Positions 7,857 through 21,531 of a stretch of DNA of 64,000 nucleotides are shown piece after piece. The DNA is from Conexibacter sp. SYSU D00693 (lineage in GTDB: Bacteria > Actinomycetota > Thermoleophilia > Solirubrobacterales > Solirubrobacteraceae), in assembly GCF_017084525.1 (NCBI RefSeq), contig NZ_CP070950.1, positions 4,092,001 to 4,156,000 on the forward strand, in the 5' to 3' direction. The position numbers and the translations under genes are program-made. The notes below the pieces were generated by a model. The model was not told the origin of the DNA. It saw only the letters and a program-made list of their open reading frames with translations, and did no database searches. How positions within the stretch are numbered: position 1 is the first letter of the stretch; each line of letters begins with the position of its first letter.

Positions 7857-7886
7857 GAACCCGCACCCCGGTCGGGGTGCGGGTTC
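7857..7886 (+). terminator. Terminator of the amt-glnK-pucR operon
   Basis: Perfect 13-bp stem (7857-7869/7874-7886) with a GGTC loop, 4 bases after the PucR stop codon; no T-tract. Confidence 0.8.
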
Positions 7887-7922
7887 AGGGTGTTCCCCGG
7901 TTCGCACGGAACCCCACGGACG

Positions 7923-7984
7923 TAGCTTCCCCAGCGCTGGACGAGCGTCCAGCACCCCGGGGCAGCGTCCAGCCTCGCTGGACG
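7923..7984 (+). promoter_or_regulatory. Promoter and 5'-terminal double hairpin of the first Ig/RTX gene
   Basis: TAGCTT (7923-7928) is a -10-like box. Seven bases later starts GCTGGAC-GAGC-GTCCAGC (7936-7953), followed by a second hairpin CGTCCAGC-CTC-GCTGGACG (7966-7984). The heptamer occurs four times, so alternative pairings are possible. The second paralogue has the same -10 to hairpin spacing and a covarying stem at 9579-9597. Confidence 0.55.
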
Positions 7985-8017
7985 TCGGGGACATCACGAA
8001 CTAGGGGTTTCACGCAC

Positions 8018-9214
8018 ATGCTCAACGACGTCCTGCGCGGCGCGCCCCGGCGCACCGCGCTCACGGGGGTGGCCGCCATCGGCGCGACCCTCGCCCTGGC
8101 CGCTCCGGCCCTCGCCGCGGCGCCCGGCACGCCGACGCTCAAGTCTGCCGACGACACCGGCACCGTCGACGGCCGCTACACCCAGGAGACCAGCCCGGAC
8201 TTCAGCGGCGCCCGCAACGGCGCCCCGACGGTCGTCGTCCAGTTCCGCGCCTGCAGCGGCGCGGACGCGGGGTCCTGCGTCGGCGGCTGGACGAACTACG
8301 ACACGCCGGGCGGCGCTCCGACGTACGACACGACGGCGACGAACAACACCGTCCTGCCGGCCGACGGCACCTACCAGTTCCGTGCCGTGAACGTGCCGTC
8401 CATGGAGACCAGCGGCTCCGTCCTGGTCACCGTCGACAACGTCGGCCCGACGACGAGCACGCCGAACATGGTCGCCGGCTCGGACACGGGCGTCTCCTCC
8501 TCGGACAACGTCACGGCCGACACGACGCCGACGTTCGACGGCACCACGAACGAGGTCGCCAACACCTTCCTCTACGTCGACACCTTCGGGCCCGACGACA
8601 GCGAGGGCGGCTACAGCGACGCGACCTACGACGTCACGCCGGGCTCGCTCAGCGTCGGCCAGCACGTCGCGCGGGCGCAGTCGGTCGACCGCGCCGGCAA
8701 CACCGGCCCGATGAGCGGCTCGCTGAACTTCGAGATCGCCTCGATCGGCTGCGACCAGGGTCCGGCCATGCTCGGCACCAACGGGGTGGACTTCTTCGTC
8801 CCGGGCGGCCCGAAGGACGAGCCGGACTTCCTGTCCACGAACGCGTCGCAGCGCTTCGAGGCGCTCGACGGCAACGACCGCCTCGAGGGCATCGGCGGTG
8901 GCGACTGCCTGCGCGGCGGTGACGACGACGACCAGCTCGACGGCGGCACCGGCTCCGACCGCCTCGAGGGTGGCTTCGGCGACGACGAGCTGCTCGGCGG
9001 CTCGAGCAGCGACCGCCTGTTCGGCGGCGCGGGCGACGACACGATCGACGCCGGCTCGGGCGACGACTACGTCATCGACGCCGGCTCGGGCAACGACGTC
9101 ATCGACAGCCGCGACGGCAACACCGAGACCGTGGACTGCGGCTCGGGCGCCTTCGACCGCGTCACGGCGGACGAGAGCGACAACCTCATCGACTGCGAGG
9201 ACGTCAAGCACTAG
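8018..9214 (+). CDS. Secreted Ig-like/RTX-type calcium-binding repeat protein, paralogue 1
   Basis: 398 residues from ATG 8018. A signal peptide (MLNDVLRGAPRRTALTG..., cleavage near ALAA) leads to two Ig-like domains (about 38-145 and 148-245), each with the TG.S..DN.T.DT.PTF.GT pattern seen in bacterial adhesins. From about 285 to 365 come glycine/aspartate nonapeptide repeats (GDDELLGG, GDDTIDAG, GNDVIDSR) of the hemolysin-type calcium-binding family, ending in the typical actinobacterial cap with paired cysteines (VDCGSGAFDRV...LIDCEDV). It is probably a surface or secreted calcium-stabilised adhesin. No anchor is visible. The next gene encodes an equal-length paralogue. The chosen start is supported by the matching paralogue start. 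Confidence 0.85.
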   Translation: MLNDVLRGAPRRTALTGVAAIGATLALAAPALAAAPGTPTLKSADDTGTVDGRYTQETSPDFSGARNGAPTVVVQFRACSGADAGSCVGGWTNYDTPGGAPTYDTTATNNTVLPADGTYQFRAVNVPSMETSGSVLVTVDNVGPTTSTPNMVAGSDTGVSSSDNVTADTTPTFDGTTNEVANTFLYVDTFGPDDSEGGYSDATYDVTPGSLSVGQHVARAQSVDRAGNTGPMSGSLNFEIASIGCDQGPAMLGTNGVDFFVPGGPKDEPDFLSTNASQRFEALDGNDRLEGIGGGDCLRGGDDDDQLDGGTGSDRLEGGFGDDELLGGSSSDRLFGGAGDDTIDAGSGDDYVIDAGSGNDVIDSRDGNTETVDCGSGAFDRVTADESDNLIDCEDVKH

Positions 9215-9271: not shown

Positions 9272-9565
9272 TGCGTCCGACCGCCGGTCGTGGCGCCGCC
9301 ACACCGCTGGTCCGACCGGACCGGATGATCGAGCCCGACCAGTCCGAGCGGTCCTGCTTGATCGCGGCGCGAGCCGGCTGACGGCGCGCGGTCGTTCGGG
9401 CCTGCGGCGCACTGCGCATGGCCGCAGCACTCCGTCGCAGTTCGGAGGACCCCCCGACGGCGGGCCCTCCGTTCGTCCGCTCGCCGCACCGCGCGGGGGT
9501 GGGAAGGTCCCACCCGTTCGGGTGGTTGTGACGAACGTTCCTATCGCTCCGGGTGGTCCCTCGCG
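9272..9565. other. Non-coding gap with overlapping inverted repeats
   Basis: No credible ORF. It holds GGTCCG-AC-CGGACC (9309-9322) and two mutually exclusive hairpins: GGGTGGGA/TCCCACCC (9497-9504/9508-9515) and CCACCC/GGGTGG (9510-9515/9520-9525) that share the middle arm. They lie about 40-70 bases upstream of the likely -10 box of the next gene, so they are more likely DNA sites than leader RNA unless transcription starts earlier. Confidence 0.4.
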
Positions 9566-9597
9566 TACCCTCGCGAGCGCCGGACGTGGGGTCCGGC
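9566..9597 (+). promoter_or_regulatory. Promoter and 5'-terminal hairpin of the second Ig/RTX gene
   Basis: TACCCT (9566-9571) followed 7 bases later by GCCGGAC-GTGGG-GTCCGGC (9579-9597). Compared with the first paralogue (GCTGGAC/GTCCAGC), one T-A pair has become C-G, a compensatory change that supports a real RNA stem. Both leaders also share ACGAACTAG just before the ribosome site. Confidence 0.5.
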
Positions 9598-9669
9598 ACC
9601 CAGGGCACGCCGCCGGGTCCAGGCCCAGCGGCACAGGGGCACAACGAACTAGAGGGGATCGAGCAACCC

Positions 9670-10866
9670 ATGCTCAACGACCTGCTTCGCGGGCGCCATC
9701 GGCGCGCCGCGCTCACCGGGGTGGCGGCCATCAGCGCCACCCTCGCCATGGCCGCGCCGGCGCTGGCCGCCGCGCCTGGCACGCCGGACATGGTGTCGGC
9801 GTCCGACTCGGGCACCTCGAGCACCGACAACATCACGAACGCCACGTCCCCGAACTTCACCGGGACGCAGGCGGGCACCGTGGTCGTCGAGTACAAGGCG
9901 TGCCCCACCGGCAGCTGCAACGGCGGCTCGGGCTGGAACGGCTACGCCAACGCGCCGGGCTCGCCGACCTACTCCACCGCCGGCCAGACCAAGGCGGTCC
10001 TGACGCCGGACGGCCGGTACGCCATCAGCGCGCGCAACACGACGACCAACGAGCGCTCCAACAGCCTCATCGTCGTCATCGACACCACCGCGCCGACGGT
10101 CAGCACGCCGAACATGCTCAGCGCCGACGACACCGGCGTCAGCAGCTCGGACAACGTCACCACCGACACGTCGCCGCGCTTCACGGGCACGACGAGCGAG
10201 AACTCCCGGACCGAGCTGCTGATCGACGGCAGCGAGGACGACGAGGAGCTCACCTACCTCACCTCGAGCTACGGCACCCTCCTCGACATCTCCGCGGACA
10301 CGCTCTCGATCGGCTTCCACACCGCCCAGGCCCGCGCCTACGACGTGGCCGGCAACCTCGGCTACAGCGGCACGCTGCAGTTCGAGATCACGGTGGTCGG
10401 CTGCGACCAGGGCCCGGCGACGCTGGGCACCAGCGGCGTGGACTTCTTCGTCCCGGCGGCCCCGAAGGCCGAGCCGGACTTCGTGTCCACGAACGCCTCG
10501 CAGCGCTTCGAGGCCGGCGGCGGCAACGACCGCCTCGAGGGCATCGGCGGCAACGACTGCCTCCGCGGCCAGGACGATGACGACCAGATCGACGGCGGCT
10601 CGGGCAACGACCGCCTCGAGGGCGGCAGCGGCGACGACGAGATCGACGGCGGCTCCGGCGCCGATCGCATCTACGGCGGCAGCGGCGACGACGAGATCGA
10701 CGCGGGCTCCGGCGACGACGTCGTCATCGACGGCGGGTCGGGCAACGACACGATCGACAGCCGTGACGGCAACGCCGAGACCGTCGACTGCGACAGCGGT
10801 GCGTTCGACACCGTCATCGCCGACGAGTCCGACACGCTGATCGGCTGCGAGAACGTCAAGCTCTAG
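9670..10866 (+). CDS. Secreted Ig-like/RTX-type calcium-binding repeat protein, paralogue 2
   Basis: 398 residues, exactly the length of its upstream paralogue, with the same order: signal peptide (cleavage near ALAA), two Ig-like domains (TGVSSSDNVTTDTSPRF.GT), a conserved linker (VGCDQGPATLGTSGVDFF) and RTX-like repeats from about 285 (GNDRLEGG, GDDEIDGG, GADRIYGG). The repeat block is more regular than in paralogue 1, with a recurring GGSG linker. The C-terminal cysteine cap is kept (VDCDSGAF...LIGCENV). The pair most likely arose by tandem duplication and has diverged strongly in the Ig domains while the linker and cap are nearly unchanged. Likely an extracellular calcium-dependent adhesin. 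Confidence 0.85.
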   Translation: MLNDLLRGRHRRAALTGVAAISATLAMAAPALAAAPGTPDMVSASDSGTSSTDNITNATSPNFTGTQAGTVVVEYKACPTGSCNGGSGWNGYANAPGSPTYSTAGQTKAVLTPDGRYAISARNTTTNERSNSLIVVIDTTAPTVSTPNMLSADDTGVSSSDNVTTDTSPRFTGTTSENSRTELLIDGSEDDEELTYLTSSYGTLLDISADTLSIGFHTAQARAYDVAGNLGYSGTLQFEITVVGCDQGPATLGTSGVDFFVPAAPKAEPDFVSTNASQRFEAGGGNDRLEGIGGNDCLRGQDDDDQIDGGSGNDRLEGGSGDDEIDGGSGADRIYGGSGDDEIDAGSGDDVVIDGGSGNDTIDSRDGNAETVDCDSGAFDTVIADESDTLIGCENVKL

Positions 10867-14726: not shown

Positions 14727-15533
14727 GTGGTCCGCAGCGTCGCCGATCGGGCATTCCTGCCCACCAAGAACGTCCTCGAAGAGGTCGGCGACATGATGAT
14801 CCTGACGGGGAAGACCATCGTGTCGGCCCTGCGGCCGCCGTACCCGTACGGCGGGGAGTTCGTCTCGCAGTTCCTCTTCGCGCTGCGGCTCTGCTGGTTC
14901 CCGCTGCTCGTCTCGACCGTCGCCTTCGGCTACGGCGCGCCCGGCCTGCAGGCCGCGAACTTCCTCGTGCTCTTCGGCGCGCTGGACCGCCTGGGCGGCT
15001 TCTTCGTCCTCGCCTCGATCCGCGAGTTCGCGCCGTTCGTGACGGCGATCATCATGGCCGGCGTCGCCGGCACCGCCATCACCGCGGACCTCGGCGCGCG
15101 CAAGATCCGCGAGGAGCTGGACGCGCTGCAGGTGCTCGGCGTCGACCCGGTCAAGAACCTCGTCGTGCCGCGCTTCCTCGCGCTCATGCTCCTGACCGGG
15201 CTCTTCGACATCTACGCGCTGATCTTCGGCATCTTCGGCGGCGTCCTCGCGACGCTCGTCAACGGCGCGCCGCTCGGCCCGTTCTGGGCCACGTTCTTCA
15301 CGAACGCCTCGACGACGGACCTCTGGGGGTCGGTCCTCAAGTGCACCTTGTTCGGCGCGATCATCGCGATCGTCTGCTGCTACAAGGGCATGACCGCCTC
15401 GGGCGGCGCCGAGGGCGTCGGCCGGGCCGTCAACCAGGCGGTCGTCATCGCGTTCCTCGGCGTCTTCGCGTTCAACTACGTGTTCACGCAGACGCTGCTG
15501 GCCACCCACCCCGAGATCACGGTGATCCGCTGA
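14727..15533 (+). CDS. MlaE/YrbE-family lipid ABC transporter permease, first subunit
   Basis: 268 residues from GTG 14727. MlaE/YrbE family permease, with five hydrophobic segments, the family signature around 100-150 (REFAPFVTAIIMAGVAGTAI, then ADLGARKIREELDALQVLGV) and the C-terminal CCYKGMTASGGAEGVGRAVN. Such permeases form the membrane core of Mce/Mla lipid transporters, with an ATPase of the MlaF/Mkl type and usually MCE-domain proteins that carry the lipid. The second permease and the ATPase follow, but no MCE gene is in the window. Lipid or sterol transport is therefore a family-level inference. Confidence 0.92.
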   Translation: MVRSVADRAFLPTKNVLEEVGDMMILTGKTIVSALRPPYPYGGEFVSQFLFALRLCWFPLLVSTVAFGYGAPGLQAANFLVLFGALDRLGGFFVLASIREFAPFVTAIIMAGVAGTAITADLGARKIREELDALQVLGVDPVKNLVVPRFLALMLLTGLFDIYALIFGIFGGVLATLVNGAPLGPFWATFFTNASTTDLWGSVLKCTLFGAIIAIVCCYKGMTASGGAEGVGRAVNQAVVIAFLGVFAFNYVFTQTLLATHPEITVIR

Positions 15534-15564
15534 TGGCGGGCACGCCCCACGGGAGGACCCGCTA

Positions 15565-16365
15565 GTGGGCGCCTCCTGGCTCGCGGTCCCGCGTGAGTGG
15601 ATCGCCTCGCTCGGCGAGATCTCGAAGTTCGCCGCGCGCGTCGCGGGCGCCGTCTACGGCCTGCGCGTCTTCCGCTTCTTCGGCGAGGCGCTGCGCCAGT
15701 GCGGGATCCTGATCCTCTCCTCGACGATCGTCATCTGGGGCCTGGTGTTCATCATCGGCCTCCAGTGCGGCATCGAGGGCGCGTACTTCTCGCGCGCGGT
15801 CGGCGCGCCGGCCAACGCCGGCGTCTTCGCCGCCTGGTGCGACCTGCGCGAGCTGGTGCCCTACGCCTTCGGCTACATGATGGCCGCGAAGGTCGGCACC
15901 GGCATCGTGGCCGAGCTCGGCTCCATGCGCATCTCGGACGAGATCGACGCGCTGGAGGTCATGGGCATCAACTCCATGATCTTCCTCTGCGCCACCCGCC
16001 TGCTGGCGTCGTGGCTCGTGCTGCCGTTCATGTACATCGCCGCCGTCGGCGCCGGCTTCCTGGCGAGCTACCTCGCCGTGGTCGAGCAGATCGGCGAGGT
16101 GTCATCCGGTGGCTACTTCCTGATCTTCTGGATGTTCCAGAACCCGCCAGACCTGCTCTACAGCCTCATCAAGGGCATGGTCATGGCCACCTTCATCGTG
16201 CTCGTCGGCTGCTACTACGGCTACAACGCCAGCGGTGGTCCGGTCGGCGTGGGCACGGCGACGGCGAAGTCGATGGTCCTCAACATCGTGCTCGTGCACC
16301 TCATCGGGATGCTCGGCACGCAGGTCTTCTGGGGCGCGAACCCACGCGCACCGATCGGAGGGTAA
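15565..16365 (+). CDS. MlaE/YrbE-family lipid ABC transporter permease, second subunit
   Basis: 266 residues from GTG 15565, 31 bases after the first permease. It has the same fold and signatures (RELVPYAFGYMMAAKVGTGI, SMRISDEIDALEVMGINS, YYGYNASGGPVGVGTATAKS) but differs clearly from the first subunit, as in actinobacterial YrbEA/YrbEB pairs that form a heterodimer. Two unusual cysteines occur in the first helix region (LQCGIE, AWCDLRE). The ATPase gene starts 7 bases after its stop, so the three are one operon. Confidence 0.92.
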   Translation: MGASWLAVPREWIASLGEISKFAARVAGAVYGLRVFRFFGEALRQCGILILSSTIVIWGLVFIIGLQCGIEGAYFSRAVGAPANAGVFAAWCDLRELVPYAFGYMMAAKVGTGIVAELGSMRISDEIDALEVMGINSMIFLCATRLLASWLVLPFMYIAAVGAGFLASYLAVVEQIGEVSSGGYFLIFWMFQNPPDLLYSLIKGMVMATFIVLVGCYYGYNASGGPVGVGTATAKSMVLNIVLVHLIGMLGTQVFWGANPRAPIGG

Positions 16366-16372
16366 GTACGAG

Positions 16373-17566
16373 ATGCCGCGGATCCCGCGTAGGAGCAAGG
16401 ACGAGGACGAGCGCGAGCCCGAGGGCCGCGAGGACTACGTCGACGGCGACGCGGTCGCCGACGACGAGGTCCCGACGGGCGCTGACGAGGCGGTCACCGC
16501 CGAGCAGCACGCCGTCGCCGACGACCCCGTCGAGGCGCCGGCCGCCGAGGAGCGCACCGAGGTGCGCCGCTCGACGTGGGACGAGCCCGACGAGGGCGAC
16601 GCCGTCCCGTTCGCCGACGAGGACGAGCAGCCCACGCGCGTCCAGGAGCCCGTCGCCGCGGGCGCCCGCGACGCCGACGGCCGCGGCAAGGCCGACCGCG
16701 TCCGCGTCGTGCAGGAGAACCCGGGGGCCGACGACGACGAGTACCGGTGGCACACCGGCCTCGTCCGCCCGACCGGCATGCCGGATGCGGTCGAGTTCGT
16801 CGACGTGCACAAGGCGTTCGGGCGCAACAAGATCCTGCGCGGCCTGAACATGGGCCTGCCCGAGGGCAAGATCTCGATGATCCTGGGGCCGTCGGGCACG
16901 GGCAAGTCGGTGTGCATCAAGCACATGGTCGGCCTGCTGTACCCCGACGAGGGCGACATCCTCGTCCACGGTGAGTCGGTGCCGAACATGGTCGACGACG
17001 ACCTGTTCGAGATGCGCAAGAAGTTCGGGGTCCTGTTCCAGGACGGTGCGCTGTTCGGGTCGATGAACCTGCTGGACAACGTCGCGTTCCCGCTGCGCCA
17101 GCACACCGACAAGGGCGAGGAGGAGATCCTCTCGATCGTCCGCCGGCGCCTGGAGGAGGTCGGCCTGGGCCACTCCGAGGACAAGTTCCCCAACGAGCTG
17201 TCGGGCGGCATGCGCAAGCGCGCCGGCTTCGCCCGCGCGCTGGTGCTCGAGCCCGACATCGTCCTCTTCGACGAGCCCGACTCCGGCCTGGACCCGGTGC
17301 GCACGGCGCTGCTGGGCGAGCTGATCCAGGAGATCCACGAGGACGTGATGGGCGACGCCGAGGAGCAGGGCAAGCCCCACCTCCCCGCGTTCTGCCTGAT
17401 CACCCACGACATCATGACCGCGCGCCGCGTGGCCGAGCACATCTCGGTGCTGTGGAAGGGCCGCATCGTGGAGTCGGGGCCGGCGGAGGAGCTCTTCAAC
17501 TCCGACAACGCCTTCGTGCGGCAGTTCCTGTCGGGCGAGTCGCAGGGCCCGCTGGGCATGGAGTAG
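16373..17566 (+). CDS. Mkl/MlaF-type ATPase with a long acidic N-terminal extension
   Basis: 397 residues from ATG 16373. Residues 1-135 are an extremely acidic, disordered-looking extension (Asp/Glu-rich, with AVADDEV and TRVQEPVAAG). The ABC domain follows from about 138: Walker A GPSGTGKS near 172, signature LSGGM near 276, Walker B IVLFDEPDSGLDP near 296 and the H-loop ITHD. The closest known families are MlaF and mycobacterial Mkl (MceG), which energise MlaE-type permeases. The acidic extension is not part of the usual fold and may dock partners or keep the protein soluble. It is the third gene of the lipid-transport operon. Confidence 0.93.
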   Translation: MPRIPRRSKDEDEREPEGREDYVDGDAVADDEVPTGADEAVTAEQHAVADDPVEAPAAEERTEVRRSTWDEPDEGDAVPFADEDEQPTRVQEPVAAGARDADGRGKADRVRVVQENPGADDDEYRWHTGLVRPTGMPDAVEFVDVHKAFGRNKILRGLNMGLPEGKISMILGPSGTGKSVCIKHMVGLLYPDEGDILVHGESVPNMVDDDLFEMRKKFGVLFQDGALFGSMNLLDNVAFPLRQHTDKGEEEILSIVRRRLEEVGLGHSEDKFPNELSGGMRKRAGFARALVLEPDIVLFDEPDSGLDPVRTALLGELIQEIHEDVMGDAEEQGKPHLPAFCLITHDIMTARRVAEHISVLWKGRIVESGPAEELFNSDNAFVRQFLSGESQGPLGME

Positions 17567-17611
17567 GCGGCGCAGCGCGCCGCTGCGCGGCGCTACCGTC
17601 GCCGCCACCAC

Positions 17612-20600
17612 GTGAAGGGCCTCGAACGCATCCTCACCGCCGTGATGGGGGCGGCGGCGCGCCGTCCCCTGGCCGTCGGCCTCGCCGTCGGCCTGCTCGC
17701 CGCGGCGGGCGCCGCGCTGGCGCTGCTGCGCCTCGAGCCGTCGGCCGCCACCGAGCAGTTCGTGGGCAGGGGCACCGAGAGCGCCCAAGCCACCGAGCGC
17801 CACCGCCAGGCCTTCGGCGAGGACGCCGTCTTCCTCCTGGTCAAGGGCGACCTGACGAAGCTCGTCCTCACCGACGACCTCCAGCGGCTGCTGCGCCTCG
17901 AGGGGTGCATCGCCGGCAACAAGCCCGACACGGTCAAGGACGAGACGCTCCCGGGCGGCGCGAACGGGCCGTGCGCGCAGTTCGCGCGCACGAAGCCGGC
18001 GAAGGTCGTCTTCGGGCCGGGGACGTTCCTCAACCAGTCCGTCGAGCAGATCACGACGCAGTTCACGGCGCGCACGCAGCAGGCCCAGCAGCAGGCGCAG
18101 GCCGCGGGGCAGGCCGCCTACGACCAGGCGCGCAAGCAGGGCCGCTCGACCGCCGAGGCGCGCCGCATCCAGCAGCAGGCCTCCGAGGCGGTGCAGGGCC
18201 AGTTCTTCCAGCAGCTCCTGCAGCTCGGCGTCCGCTACGGCATCACCGGCGTGCCGCGGCTCAACGACCCGCAGTTCGTCTCCCAGCTCGTCTTCGACGC
18301 GACCAAGCCGGCAGGGACGCCGAAGGCGCGCTTCGCCTACCTCTTCCCGAACCGGGACTCGGCGATGGTGCAGGTGCGGATGAAGCCGGGGCTCACCGAG
18401 GCCCAGCGCACGCACGCCATCGAGCAGGTCCGCGCCGCCGCGCGGCTGCCCGACTTCCAGCCGCGCAACGGCGGGCGCTACGTCGTCACCGGCGCGCCCG
18501 TCGTCGTCGCCGACCTGACGGGGTCCATCAGCTCGTCGATCTTGGTCCTGCTGCTCGTCGCCGTCGGCGTCATGGCGCTCACGCTCTCGCTCGTCTTCAA
18601 GGCGCGCCTGCGGCTGCTGCCGCTCGGCGTGGCGCTCGCCGCGACGGCGCTGACCTTCGGCGGCCTGTCGCTCGTCGGCGCGTCGCTGACGATGGCGTCG
18701 ATCGGCGTGCTGCCCGTGCTGATCGGCCTCGCGGTCGACTACGCGATCCAGCTGCAGTCGCGCATCCAGGAGCGGCGGGTGGGGTCCGTGCGCCGCGCGG
18801 TGGACCAGACCGCGCGCGACGGCGCGCCGACCGTCGCCGTCGCGGCGGCCGCCACGGGCGCCGGCTTCCTCGTGATGCTGCTGTCCCCGGTGCCGATGGT
18901 CCGCGGCTTCGGCCTGCTGCTCGTCGCCGGCATCGCGCTGGCCTTCGTCTGCGCGCTGAGCCTCGGCGTCGCGGTCCTGGCCGGTGCGCTCGAGGGCTGG
19001 GGCACGCGCCGGCGGCGGCGTGTGCCGCGCCCGCTGCGCGACGCCGGCGCCATCGCGCGCGACGCCGCGCGCGACGCCGGCCAGATCGTCCGCGGCTCGC
19101 GGCCCGGCCGCGCCGTGGCGCGCGGGCTCACGCGGCACGGCGAGCTCGAGGCGGCGCCGGCGATGGGGCCCGACGCGACCCGGACGCTGCCGCGCCGCTC
19201 GCTCGCGGCGGTGCTCGACGCGCTGCCGCTGGCCGCCGTCGCCTGGGCCCTGGCCGGGCCCGCGGGCTGGTCGGTGTTCGCCACCGTCGTCGCCGTCCTC
19301 GCGGCCGCCGCCCTGCTGCACGGCGTGCTGGCCGGTGGCTGGGGCTGGACGCCCGGCAAGCTCCTGCTCGGGCTGCGCCTGGTCGACCGCCGCGGCCGGC
19401 CGCCCGGCATCGCCGCCGCCCTGGTGCGTGGCCTGACCGCGCCGGCGGACGCCGTCGCCGGCCTGCGCGCCGCACACCGCTCGCCGTGGCGCCAGCGGCT
19501 GGGGGACCAGGTCGCGGGGACCCTCGTCGTGCGTCGCACCCGCCTCGCGCCGGCCACGGGCGCCGCGGGCGCGCCGCCGCGCCCGTGGGCGCTGCTCACG
19601 GGCGGCGGGCTCACCGCCCTGGCGCCGACGTCGCGGCCGCGGCTCGTCCTCGGCGTCGCCGCGGCGGTCGCCGTGCTCGGCTGGGGCCTGGACACCCAGC
19701 AGCGGGTGGAGAGCGACATCCTCAAGCTCGTCCCGCAGGACCTCCCGGCCCTCGGCGACCTCGTCGACCTCCAGGACTCGACCGGCGTGGGCGGCGAGGT
19801 CGACGTCGTGGTGCGCTCGGACCGGCTGACCGAGCCCGAGACGGTGCGGTGGATGGTCAGCTACCAGGACCGGCTGCTCAAGCGCTTCGGCTACAGCGCC
19901 GAGCGCGGGTGCGGGCGCGCGGAGGTCTGCCCGGCGTTCTCGCTGCCGGACCTCTTCCGCGACGAGAGCGCCTCCTCCTCCAAGGAGGCGATCGAGGAGC
20001 TCCTCGACCTCGTCCCGGCGTACTTCTCCCAGGGCGTCATCACGCAGGACCGCAGGACCGCGACGCTCGCCTTCGGCATCAAGCTCATGCCGCTCGAGCG
20101 CCAGAAGGAGGTCATCGACGCGATGCGCGACGGCCTCGACGACCCCCCGGACGGCGTGACCGCGGAGGTGGCCGGGCTCAACGTCCTGGCCGCGGACGCC
20201 AACGACGCGATCGCCTCGCCGTGGTGGCGGGCTCTGAGCCTCGTCGTCGGGCTGCTGGCGGTCCTCGCCGTGCTGCTGGCCGCCTTCCGCGACCGCCGTC
20301 GCGCGCTGGTGCCGCTCGTGCCGATCGCCCTGGCGACGGGCTGGTCGGGGCTCGTGCTGTTCGCGCTGCGGGTGGAGCTCAACCCGATGTCGGTGACGAT
20401 GGGCGCGCTGGTCATCGCGATCTCGACCGAGTTCAGCGTCCTGCTCAGCGAGCGCTACCGCCGCGAGCGCCTGGACGGCCGGCCCGCGCGCGAGGCGCTC
20501 GAGCGCACGTACCGCTCGACCGGCGCCGCGGTGCTGGCCTCCGGCGCGACGGCCGTCGCCGGCTTCGCCGTCCTCGTGGCCAGCGACATCACGATGCTGC

Positions 20601-20794
20601 GCGACTTCGGCGCGGTGACGGTCGTCAACCTCGCGGTCTCGCTGCTCGGCGTGCTCGTCGTGCTGCCGTCCGTGCTGCTGCTGGCCGAGGCCCGCGAGGG
20701 CCATGCGCCCGCCGGCCCGCGGATGCGCCTGCCCCGCCCGTCGCTCGGGCGCCCCCGGCTGCGCCGGCGCCGCCCCGCGGCGGAGGCCGCGTGA
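17612..20794 (+). CDS. RND/MMPL-type transporter with an embedded RDD domain
   Basis: 1060 residues from GTG 17612. Two MMPL/RND halves are visible: an N-terminal helix, a periplasmic-type domain with a Gln/Ala-rich coiled segment (about 150-200), and helices near 305-465 with the sterol-sensing-like signature (LPVLIGLAVDYAIQLQSRIQ); then from about 690 a second half ending in the helices MGALVIAISTEFSVLLSERY. Between them, at about 528-643, sits an RDD domain (VLDALPLAAVAWAL, TPGKLLLGLRLVDRRGRPPG, GDQVAGTLVV). RDD inside an RND protein is unusual. RND/MMPL proteins move lipids or hydrophobic compounds; the MlaE-Mkl genes upstream suggest the same here. Its TGA overlaps the next start. Confidence 0.85.
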   Translation: MKGLERILTAVMGAAARRPLAVGLAVGLLAAAGAALALLRLEPSAATEQFVGRGTESAQATERHRQAFGEDAVFLLVKGDLTKLVLTDDLQRLLRLEGCIAGNKPDTVKDETLPGGANGPCAQFARTKPAKVVFGPGTFLNQSVEQITTQFTARTQQAQQQAQAAGQAAYDQARKQGRSTAEARRIQQQASEAVQGQFFQQLLQLGVRYGITGVPRLNDPQFVSQLVFDATKPAGTPKARFAYLFPNRDSAMVQVRMKPGLTEAQRTHAIEQVRAAARLPDFQPRNGGRYVVTGAPVVVADLTGSISSSILVLLLVAVGVMALTLSLVFKARLRLLPLGVALAATALTFGGLSLVGASLTMASIGVLPVLIGLAVDYAIQLQSRIQERRVGSVRRAVDQTARDGAPTVAVAAAATGAGFLVMLLSPVPMVRGFGLLLVAGIALAFVCALSLGVAVLAGALEGWGTRRRRRVPRPLRDAGAIARDAARDAGQIVRGSRPGRAVARGLTRHGELEAAPAMGPDATRTLPRRSLAAVLDALPLAAVAWALAGPAGWSVFATVVAVLAAAALLHGVLAGGWGWTPGKLLLGLRLVDRRGRPPGIAAALVRGLTAPADAVAGLRAAHRSPWRQRLGDQVAGTLVVRRTRLAPATGAAGAPPRPWALLTGGGLTALAPTSRPRLVLGVAAAVAVLGWGLDTQQRVESDILKLVPQDLPALGDLVDLQDSTGVGGEVDVVVRSDRLTEPETVRWMVSYQDRLLKRFGYSAERGCGRAEVCPAFSLPDLFRDESASSSKEAIEELLDLVPAYFSQGVITQDRRTATLAFGIKLMPLERQKEVIDAMRDGLDDPPDGVTAEVAGLNVLAADANDAIASPWWRALSLVVGLLAVLAVLLAAFRDRRRALVPLVPIALATGWSGLVLFALRVELNPMSVTMGALVIAISTEFSVLLSERYRRERLDGRPAREALERTYRSTGAAVLASGATAVAGFAVLVASDITMLRDFGAVTVVNLAVSLLGVLVVLPSVLLLAEAREGHAPAGPRMRLPRPSLGRPRLRRRRPAAEAA

Positions 20795-21531
20795 GCGGGC
20801 CACTCGACTTCCACGACGACGACGAGGCGGCGCGCGCCCGCCGCGAGCGCCTGGCACGTCGCGAGGACCCCGACCAGCGCGCACAGCGCGTCGAAGGCCG
20901 CTCGCCGCGGCCCGCGGCGCGCCCGCCGCAACGACGGACGTGGCGCACCCCCATCGCCCTGCTGGCCATCGCCGGCCTGCTCGTCGCCATCTCGCTCAGC
21001 GCCTTGCGCAACGACGGGCGCACGCCGGGGCCGTCCGTCGGCGACCGGCTGCCGCCGTTCGCCGCCCCGCTGGCGGTGTCGCGGCTCGAGGGTGCGGTGA
21101 ACCTGCGCCGCAGCACCGAGGCCGGCGACGGCCCGCTGGCCTGCGACGTCCGCGGCGCCGACAAGGTCAACGTCTGCGAGCTCTACGAGCGGGGCCCGGT
21201 CGTCCTGACGTTCTTCACCACCGGCGGCGACCGCTGCGTGCGCCAGCTCGACGTCGTCGACCGGGTCGCCGCGCGCCACCCCGAGGTCGAGTTCGCCGCG
21301 ATCGCCCTGGCCGGCGAGCGCGCCGAGGTGCGCGACGTCGTGCGCCGCCACCGCTGGCGCTTCCCCGTGGGCCACGACGAGGAGGGGCTGCTGGCCAGCG
21401 TCTACGGCGTCGCGGTCTGCCCTCAGATCACCTTCGCGCGGCGCGGCGGCGCGGTGGTCGACACGAACGTCGGCGACCTCGACGCCCGCGGCCTGGACGC
21501 GCTGGTGCGCCAGCTGGAGCGCCGGGGGTGA
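20791..21531 (+). CDS. Membrane-anchored thioredoxin-like (TlpA/AhpC-type) protein without CxxC
   Basis: 246 residues from GTG 20791, GTGA overlap with the RND gene. An acidic/arginine-rich cytoplasmic head (1-50) is followed by one membrane helix (about 54-72) and an outward thioredoxin-fold domain of the redoxin/TlpA type. The usual W-C-x-x-C-K active site is replaced by FFTTGGDRCVRQL, which keeps only one cysteine. Another cysteine precedes the cis-proline (VAVCPQITF) and two lie in an N-terminal insertion (ACDVRG, NVCELY). It may act as a peroxiredoxin-like or chaperone module for the RND partner rather than as a classical disulfide reductase. Confidence 0.75.
   Translation: MSGPLDFHDDDEAARARRERLARREDPDQRAQRVEGRSPRPAARPPQRRTWRTPIALLAIAGLLVAISLSALRNDGRTPGPSVGDRLPPFAAPLAVSRLEGAVNLRRSTEAGDGPLACDVRGADKVNVCELYERGPVVLTFFTTGGDRCVRQLDVVDRVAARHPEVEFAAIALAGERAEVRDVVRRHRWRFPVGHDEEGLLASVYGVAVCPQITFARRGGAVVDTNVGDLDARGLDALVRQLERRG

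What the first reader, a model, noticed from the sequence alone, without database searches (positions are those of the whole stretch)
19195..19540. RDD domain inserted between the two halves of an RND transporter
Residues about 528-643 of the 1060-residue transporter read as an RDD membrane domain (DALPLAAVAWAL, TPGKLLLGLRLVDRRG, GDQVAGTLVV), in the cytoplasmic/membrane boundary between MMPL halves. RDD domains are normally separate proteins of unknown or Na+/H+-linked function; I know of no standard RND architecture that includes one. It could regulate, dimerise or couple the pump to the MlaE complex.
Basis: seen in the sequence. Interest (0 to 1): 0.6.

Follow-up and report, generated by a model that had tools for sequence, protein, structure and literature searches.

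The report
RDD domain inside a lipid-pump gene
One actinobacterium carries a lipid-pump gene with a second, unrelated membrane domain (RDD) inserted cleanly between its two halves; no other sampled relative has it, so it is a real but so far single-lineage rearrangement whose function is unproven.

Summary
Window 17612-20794 (+) is one open frame of 1060 aa: an MMPL/RND pump (Pfam E 4.5e-51) with an RDD domain (PF06271, 41.7 bits, cut-off 24.1) at residues 526-608, extended to about 640 by a local profile. It is not a frame error. Relatives align straight across a clean insert of about 155 residues in the cytoplasmic linker. None of 52 other distinct homologues read carries it, and insert searches of 399 class and 396 phylum genomes found no other frame of pump size: a singleton on present evidence.

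The RDD keeps its diagnostic Arg, Asp, TxGK and Asp residues, but its third membrane helix is the least hydrophobic and shortest of 59 RDD domains. That leaves two helices, so both ends stay cytoplasmic and pump topology is preserved.

The pump is the last gene of a conserved mce-type operon (MlaE-MlaE-MlaF-Mce A-F-MMPL). Here the six Mce genes are gone from this locus, while six permease-less Mce hexads of the same type lie elsewhere in the genome. RDD in mce operons has precedent (mycobacterial Mas1B).

Best reading: a lineage-specific docking or regulatory module on an Mce-linked lipid pump, probably not an antiporter. Function untested.

The parts
17612..20794 (+). MMPL-RDD-MMPL fusion pump gene, 1060 aa
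17612..19144 (+). first RND half (residues 1-511): TM1-TM6, porter loop, and the conserved charged linker start (RDAGQIVRGSRPGRAVARG)
   Evidence: Pfam, AlphaFold2 helices with pLDDT mostly 75-93, linker alignment
19145..19612 (+). insert absent from all homologues read, residues 512-667 (about 155 aa)
19187..19531 (+). RDD domain, residues 526-640, with R529, D536, TPGK 580-583, R606, D632 kept
19202..19258 (+). RDD transmembrane helix 1 (residues 531-549)
   Evidence: hydropathy
19274..19330 (+). RDD transmembrane helix 2 (residues 555-573)
   Evidence: hydropathy
19430..19504 (+). segment corresponding to RDD helix 3 (residues 607-631), degenerate: best 17-residue mean hydropathy 0.22 against 1.81 +/- 0.46 in 58 other RDD domains
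19613..20791 (+). second RND half (residues 668-1060): TM7-TM12 and porter loop
14727..15533 (+). MlaE/YrbE permease 1, start of the syntenic operon
   Evidence: whole-genome PF02405 scan, synteny
15565..16365 (+). MlaE/YrbE permease 2
   Evidence: Pfam 4.8e-54
16340..17566 (+). MlaF-type ABC ATPase with N-terminal extension
   Evidence: Pfam 6.4e-27, synteny
17567..17611 (.). 45-base gap where six mce genes (about 9 kb) sit in most relatives examined
20803..21531 (+). redoxin-like gene, syntenic downstream neighbour

Best explanation
The gene encodes an MmpL/HAE3-like RND lipid pump belonging to an mce-type lipid transport operon. In this lineage a complete RDD domain from a stand-alone RDD gene was inserted into the long, variable cytoplasmic linker joining the two RND halves (shown by comparison). 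The domain then lost its third membrane helix, leaving a two-helix hairpin with both ends in the cytoplasm, so TM7-TM12 keep their orientation (sequence shown, topology inferred). It most likely works as an accessory membrane module whose conserved cytoplasm-facing polar face docks a partner or senses a ligand, and so tethers or gates the pump next to its MlaE-MlaE-MlaF partners (inferred). It is unlikely to transport ions itself.
For: RDD above the Pfam cut-off within one coherent frame. Clean insert of about 155 aa in a linker of otherwise 15-129 aa, absent from 52 other distinct homologues. Diagnostic R, D, R, D invariant with the 58 other RDD domains; helix 3 the least hydrophobic and shortest of 59. 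Uncharged turn between the two helices and strongly positive flanks fit a hairpin with both ends inside. Nearest RDD relatives are stand-alone proteins. Pump linked to MlaE, MlaE and MlaF, with synteny across the family. Precedents: RDD in mycobacterial mce operons as two helices, in-out and out-in (PMC1810536); RDD proposed to hold a conserved intramembrane site facing the cytoplasm (PMC12419801); RDD protein SppI binds and inhibits the membrane protease SppA (PMC7568657). The linker tolerates a hydrophobic hairpin in another genome too (L154).
Against: Only one genome has it, so selection on the fused form cannot be measured. The RDD branch is the longest in the tree (2.33 against a median of 0.5), which would also fit relaxed constraint. 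AlphaFold2 gave no confident structure for the insert (pLDDT under 50 at 488-668; mean 52 alone), so no docking face is shown. RDD genes elsewhere in this family are not near MlaE genes (positions), so Mce partnership is not general. No experiment.
Confidence: 0.5

Rival explanations
1. Neutral or decaying insertion: the RDD was captured in a tolerant linker, does nothing for the pump and is drifting.
For: Singleton; longest RDD branch and degenerate helix 3; the linker is long and variable in the family (15-129 aa).
Against: The family-invariant residues (R529, D536, G582, R606, D632) and the AGTxVV tail survive at about 30-40% overall identity, which drift alone would tend to remove; frame and codon bias intact.
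Confidence: 0.27
2. The RDD acts as a Na+(K+)/H+ antiporter or ion sensor that couples a second ion gradient to the pump.
For: One RDD protein from Halobacillus andaensis has antiport activity (PMC5996927); RND pumps run on ion gradients (general knowledge).
Against: Helix 3 of that three-helix protein has no hydrophobic counterpart here. Four residues were essential there; the position equivalent to D158 (four after the conserved Asp) is Gly636 here if no gap intervenes (inference, not aligned). B. subtilis SppI shares all six residues, yet deleting or overexpressing it changed no salt or pH resistance (PMC7568657).
Confidence: 0.06
3. The RDD is a homo-oligomerisation module that sets the pump's stoichiometry.
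For: It sits at the cytoplasmic face; the model's best structural matches include an MmpL5/MmpS5 complex with C3 symmetry.
Against: No structural or sequence evidence for self-association; no RDD structure in the PDB copy by sequence.
Confidence: 0.1
4. Assembly or frame artefact joining two pump halves and a separate RDD gene.
For: Singleton in one assembly.
Against: Single-contig genome, one open frame, uniform codon bias, and homologues align as one protein on both sides of the insert.
Confidence: 0.02

Closest known systems
MMPL/RND pumps of the HAE3 type (TIGR00921) and MmpL3/4/5, HpnN
   Same: Two-half RND fold; TIGR00921 is the best family model (308 bits); the Foldseek list is led by MmpL5, MmpL4 and MmpL3
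   Different: Below the TIGR00921 curated cut-off (308.4 against 351.9); carries an RDD in the central linker, which none of these entries is described as having
RDD family (PF06271), e.g. H. andaensis RDD, B. subtilis SppI
   Same: Signature Arg, Asp, Asp and TxGK motif kept
   Different: Embedded in the middle of a pump instead of stand-alone or terminal; helix 3 degenerate
Mas1B of the mycobacterial mce1 operon (RDD plus Mas domain)
   Same: RDD linked to an mce system; two helices in-out and out-in called the RDD part (PMC1810536)
   Different: There RDD precedes an extracellular Mas domain; here it lies inside an RND pump; no sequence comparison with Mas1B was made
VanZ-RDD fusions (PMC12419801)
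   Same: RDD fused to another integral membrane domain linked to lipid chemistry
   Different: Different partner; not described as an insertion between two halves of a transporter

Membership tests
RDD family PF06271 | profile match above curated cut-off | tested here: met
   41.7 bits against 24.1; 46.9 in genome scan
RDD family PF06271 | Arg at start of helix 1, Asp in helix 1, Asp near C-terminus | tested here: met
   R529, D536, D632 align with columns invariant in 59 domains
RDD family PF06271 | three transmembrane segments | tested here: not met
   third segment hydropathy 0.22 over its best 17 residues against 1.81 +/- 0.46, minimum 0.91, in 58 others; so a derived RDD homologue by sequence, not a canonical member
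RDD as Na+/H+ antiporter (H. andaensis type) | antiport activity | not testable with these tools
   needs an assay; helix 3 loss argues against
MMPL family PF03176 | two RND halves above cut-off | tested here: met
   174.2 bits, two stretches; AlphaFold2 model matches MmpL4/5/3
HAE3 subfamily TIGR00921 | score above curated cut-off 351.9 | tested here: not met
   308.4 bits; resembles HAE3 but not filed as a member
HpnN hopanoid transporter (NF052374) | score above equivalog cut-off | tested here: not met
   73.1 bits against 1100
mce-type operon | MlaE pair plus six Mce genes at one locus | tested here: not met
   MlaE pair and MlaF present, no MlaD-domain gene in the window; seven relatives have the full set

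The most novel reading that the evidence does not exclude
The window's MlaE-MlaE-MlaF-MMPL set is a shared permease, ATPase and pump core for six unlinked Mce hexads scattered in this genome, and the RDD inserted in the pump is an adaptor that lets one core work with several hexads.
Probability: 0.1. Interest if true: 0.65.

Novelty: new variant of a known kind. Interest (0 to 1): 0.4.

Why it matters
RDD domains are very common and poorly understood. A natural fusion inside a lipid pump gives a concrete partner and topology to test, and adds to the mycobacterial Mas1B case linking RDD to mce lipid transport. The reduction from three helices to two is a clear example of how a membrane domain can be made to fit inside another membrane protein. 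As a singleton it is a lead, not a rule.

Tried and rejected
Frame error or fused neighbouring genes: rejected by frame, codon bias and alignment. Recent copy of this genome's other RDD gene (C1:44208): rejected, it sits in a different part of the tree. Fusion widespread: not found; long-frame RDD hits elsewhere were read and show no MMPL, and long-frame pump homologues were read and show no RDD. General RDD-mce neighbourhood in the family: not seen by comparing positions; one RDD in G188 lies about 14 kb from its MlaE genes and was not pursued. Structure of the insert: AlphaFold2 uninformative because no allowed alignment covers it; viral contig scans for relatives found none. PDB search for RDD: only chance nanobody hits. 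Whole-protein searches over many genomes failed on the server and were replaced by part-protein searches. One search was spoiled by an out-of-frame query and is replaced.

Full report
OBSERVATION. The gene at 17612-20794 (+) is a single frame of 1060 codons. Pfam recognises MMPL over both halves (4.5e-51) and RDD at residues 526-608 (1.8e-10, 41.7 bits, cut-off 24.1). A profile built here from RDD domains of the same class extends the match to residue 633, i.e. essentially the whole domain. G+C at third codon positions is 0.97-1.00 before, in and after the domain, so it is not a frame slip.

DISTRIBUTION. The closest homologues found in named genomes are Solirubrobacterales and related assemblies, 835-943 aa long where complete and without the domain. 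In the same genus (seven genomes) the intact homologues are in frames of 896-923 codons and lack it. Homologues are present in 185 of 232 genomes of the order. I read the linkers of 53 distinct proteins: lengths 15-129 aa in all but the window's (211), with an RDD only in the window's protein. All listed homologues with frames of 990 codons or more were read and contain no RDD. Searches with the insert alone over 399 class genomes and 396 phylum genomes found only other RDD proteins, none in a frame of pump size with MMPL; the longest RDD frames were fetched and have no MMPL. These are samples of the held species, and in the larger genomes only the best 8 or 11 candidates were scored, so 'singleton' means in this sample.

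ANATOMY. The alignment puts a clean insert of about 155 residues after RAVARGLTRHGEL and before TALAPTSRPRLVLG. The preceding amphipathic, positive linker element (family pattern LRGAGELV) is kept. Within the insert, R529, D536, TPGK580-583, R606 and D632 match columns that are invariant or nearly so in 59 RDD domains. The segment between R606 and D632, which in other RDD proteins forms the third helix (three segments reported for the H. andaensis protein, PMC5996927), is the shortest (25 residues, others 28-38) and least hydrophobic (0.22 against 1.81 +/- 0.46, minimum 0.91) of the set. With two helices, an uncharged turn between them and positive flanks, both ends should be cytoplasmic. A three-helix RDD would invert the second half of the pump; this inference follows from RND topology and the positive-inside rule. 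Another homologue (L154) carries an unrelated two-helix hydrophobic hairpin in the same linker, so the site tolerates even-numbered insertions.

ORIGIN. In a tree of 59 RDD domains the insert groups, with moderate support (80/84) and on the longest branch, with stand-alone RDD proteins of another family of the order (L080, L086, L095), which lie in unrelated gene neighbourhoods. It is not a recent copy of the genome's other RDD gene.

CONTEXT. In seven relatives examined the order is MlaE-MlaE-MlaF-Mce genes-MMPL-redoxin, with conserved genes downstream wherever the fetched stretch reaches. In the window the Mce genes are missing and MlaF is 45 bases from the pump. One other genome (G007) also lacks them there and has a different, regulator-like gene in the gap, without an RDD in its pump. 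The sixth Mce protein of G008 is 87% and 75% identical to its counterparts in two congeners but at most 50% to anything in this genome. This genome holds 91 MlaD domains and 20 MlaE genes, i.e. 10 pairs. From the positions, nine hexads adjoin an MlaE pair, six do not, one MlaE pair (the window's) has no hexad, and one MlaD gene is alone. The six permease-less hexads keep A-F order and are closer to the lost hexad (34-50%) than the two permease-linked hexads examined in full (26-34%); no MlaE, MMPL or close MlaF lies in their fetched flanks. A shared core is therefore plausible but untested. A precedent for alternative Mce subunits on one permease is MSMEG_6540 beside Mce1A (PMC10517005).

MECHANISM. 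Shown: insertion, retained RDD signature, degenerate third helix, operon linkage. Inferred: hairpin topology; role as a docking or sensing module on the cytoplasmic side of the pump. Support from elsewhere: RDD in mycobacterial Mas1B (PMC1810536), proposed cytoplasm-facing intramembrane site (PMC12419801), complex formation and inhibition by SppI (PMC7568657, where inhibition involves its C-terminal domain). AlphaFold2 modelled the pump halves well but not the insert (under 50), so no interface can be claimed.

VERDICT. Real, clean, apparently new architecture, built from two known families; single lineage; function open. Interest moderate.

Noticed in passing
G000 C1 (window genome); window 14727-17566; L164, L165, L188-L191: The genome holds 91 MlaD domains (15 hexads plus one single) but only 10 MlaE pairs; six hexads have no permease nearby, and the window's MlaE-MlaE-MlaF set has no hexad. 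Those six are the hexads most similar to the one lost from this locus, suggesting one shared core.
   Followed up: partly
L162 4801-6144 (G007 C81): In another genome of the family the Mce genes between MlaF and the pump are also absent, with one MerR-like gene (by eye) in their place.
   Followed up: partly
L154 (G453 C7), linker of the pump homologue: A different two-helix hydrophobic hairpin sits in the same inter-half linker, without RDD motifs.
   Followed up: no
L017, L021, L027 and G053 C64, G072 C360: Several genomes of the family carry runs of two to four adjacent RDD genes.
   Followed up: no
window 7877-9214 and 9553-10866: Two adjacent similar genes, each with bacterial Ig-like (Big_13) and RTX calcium-binding repeat matches.
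   Followed up: no
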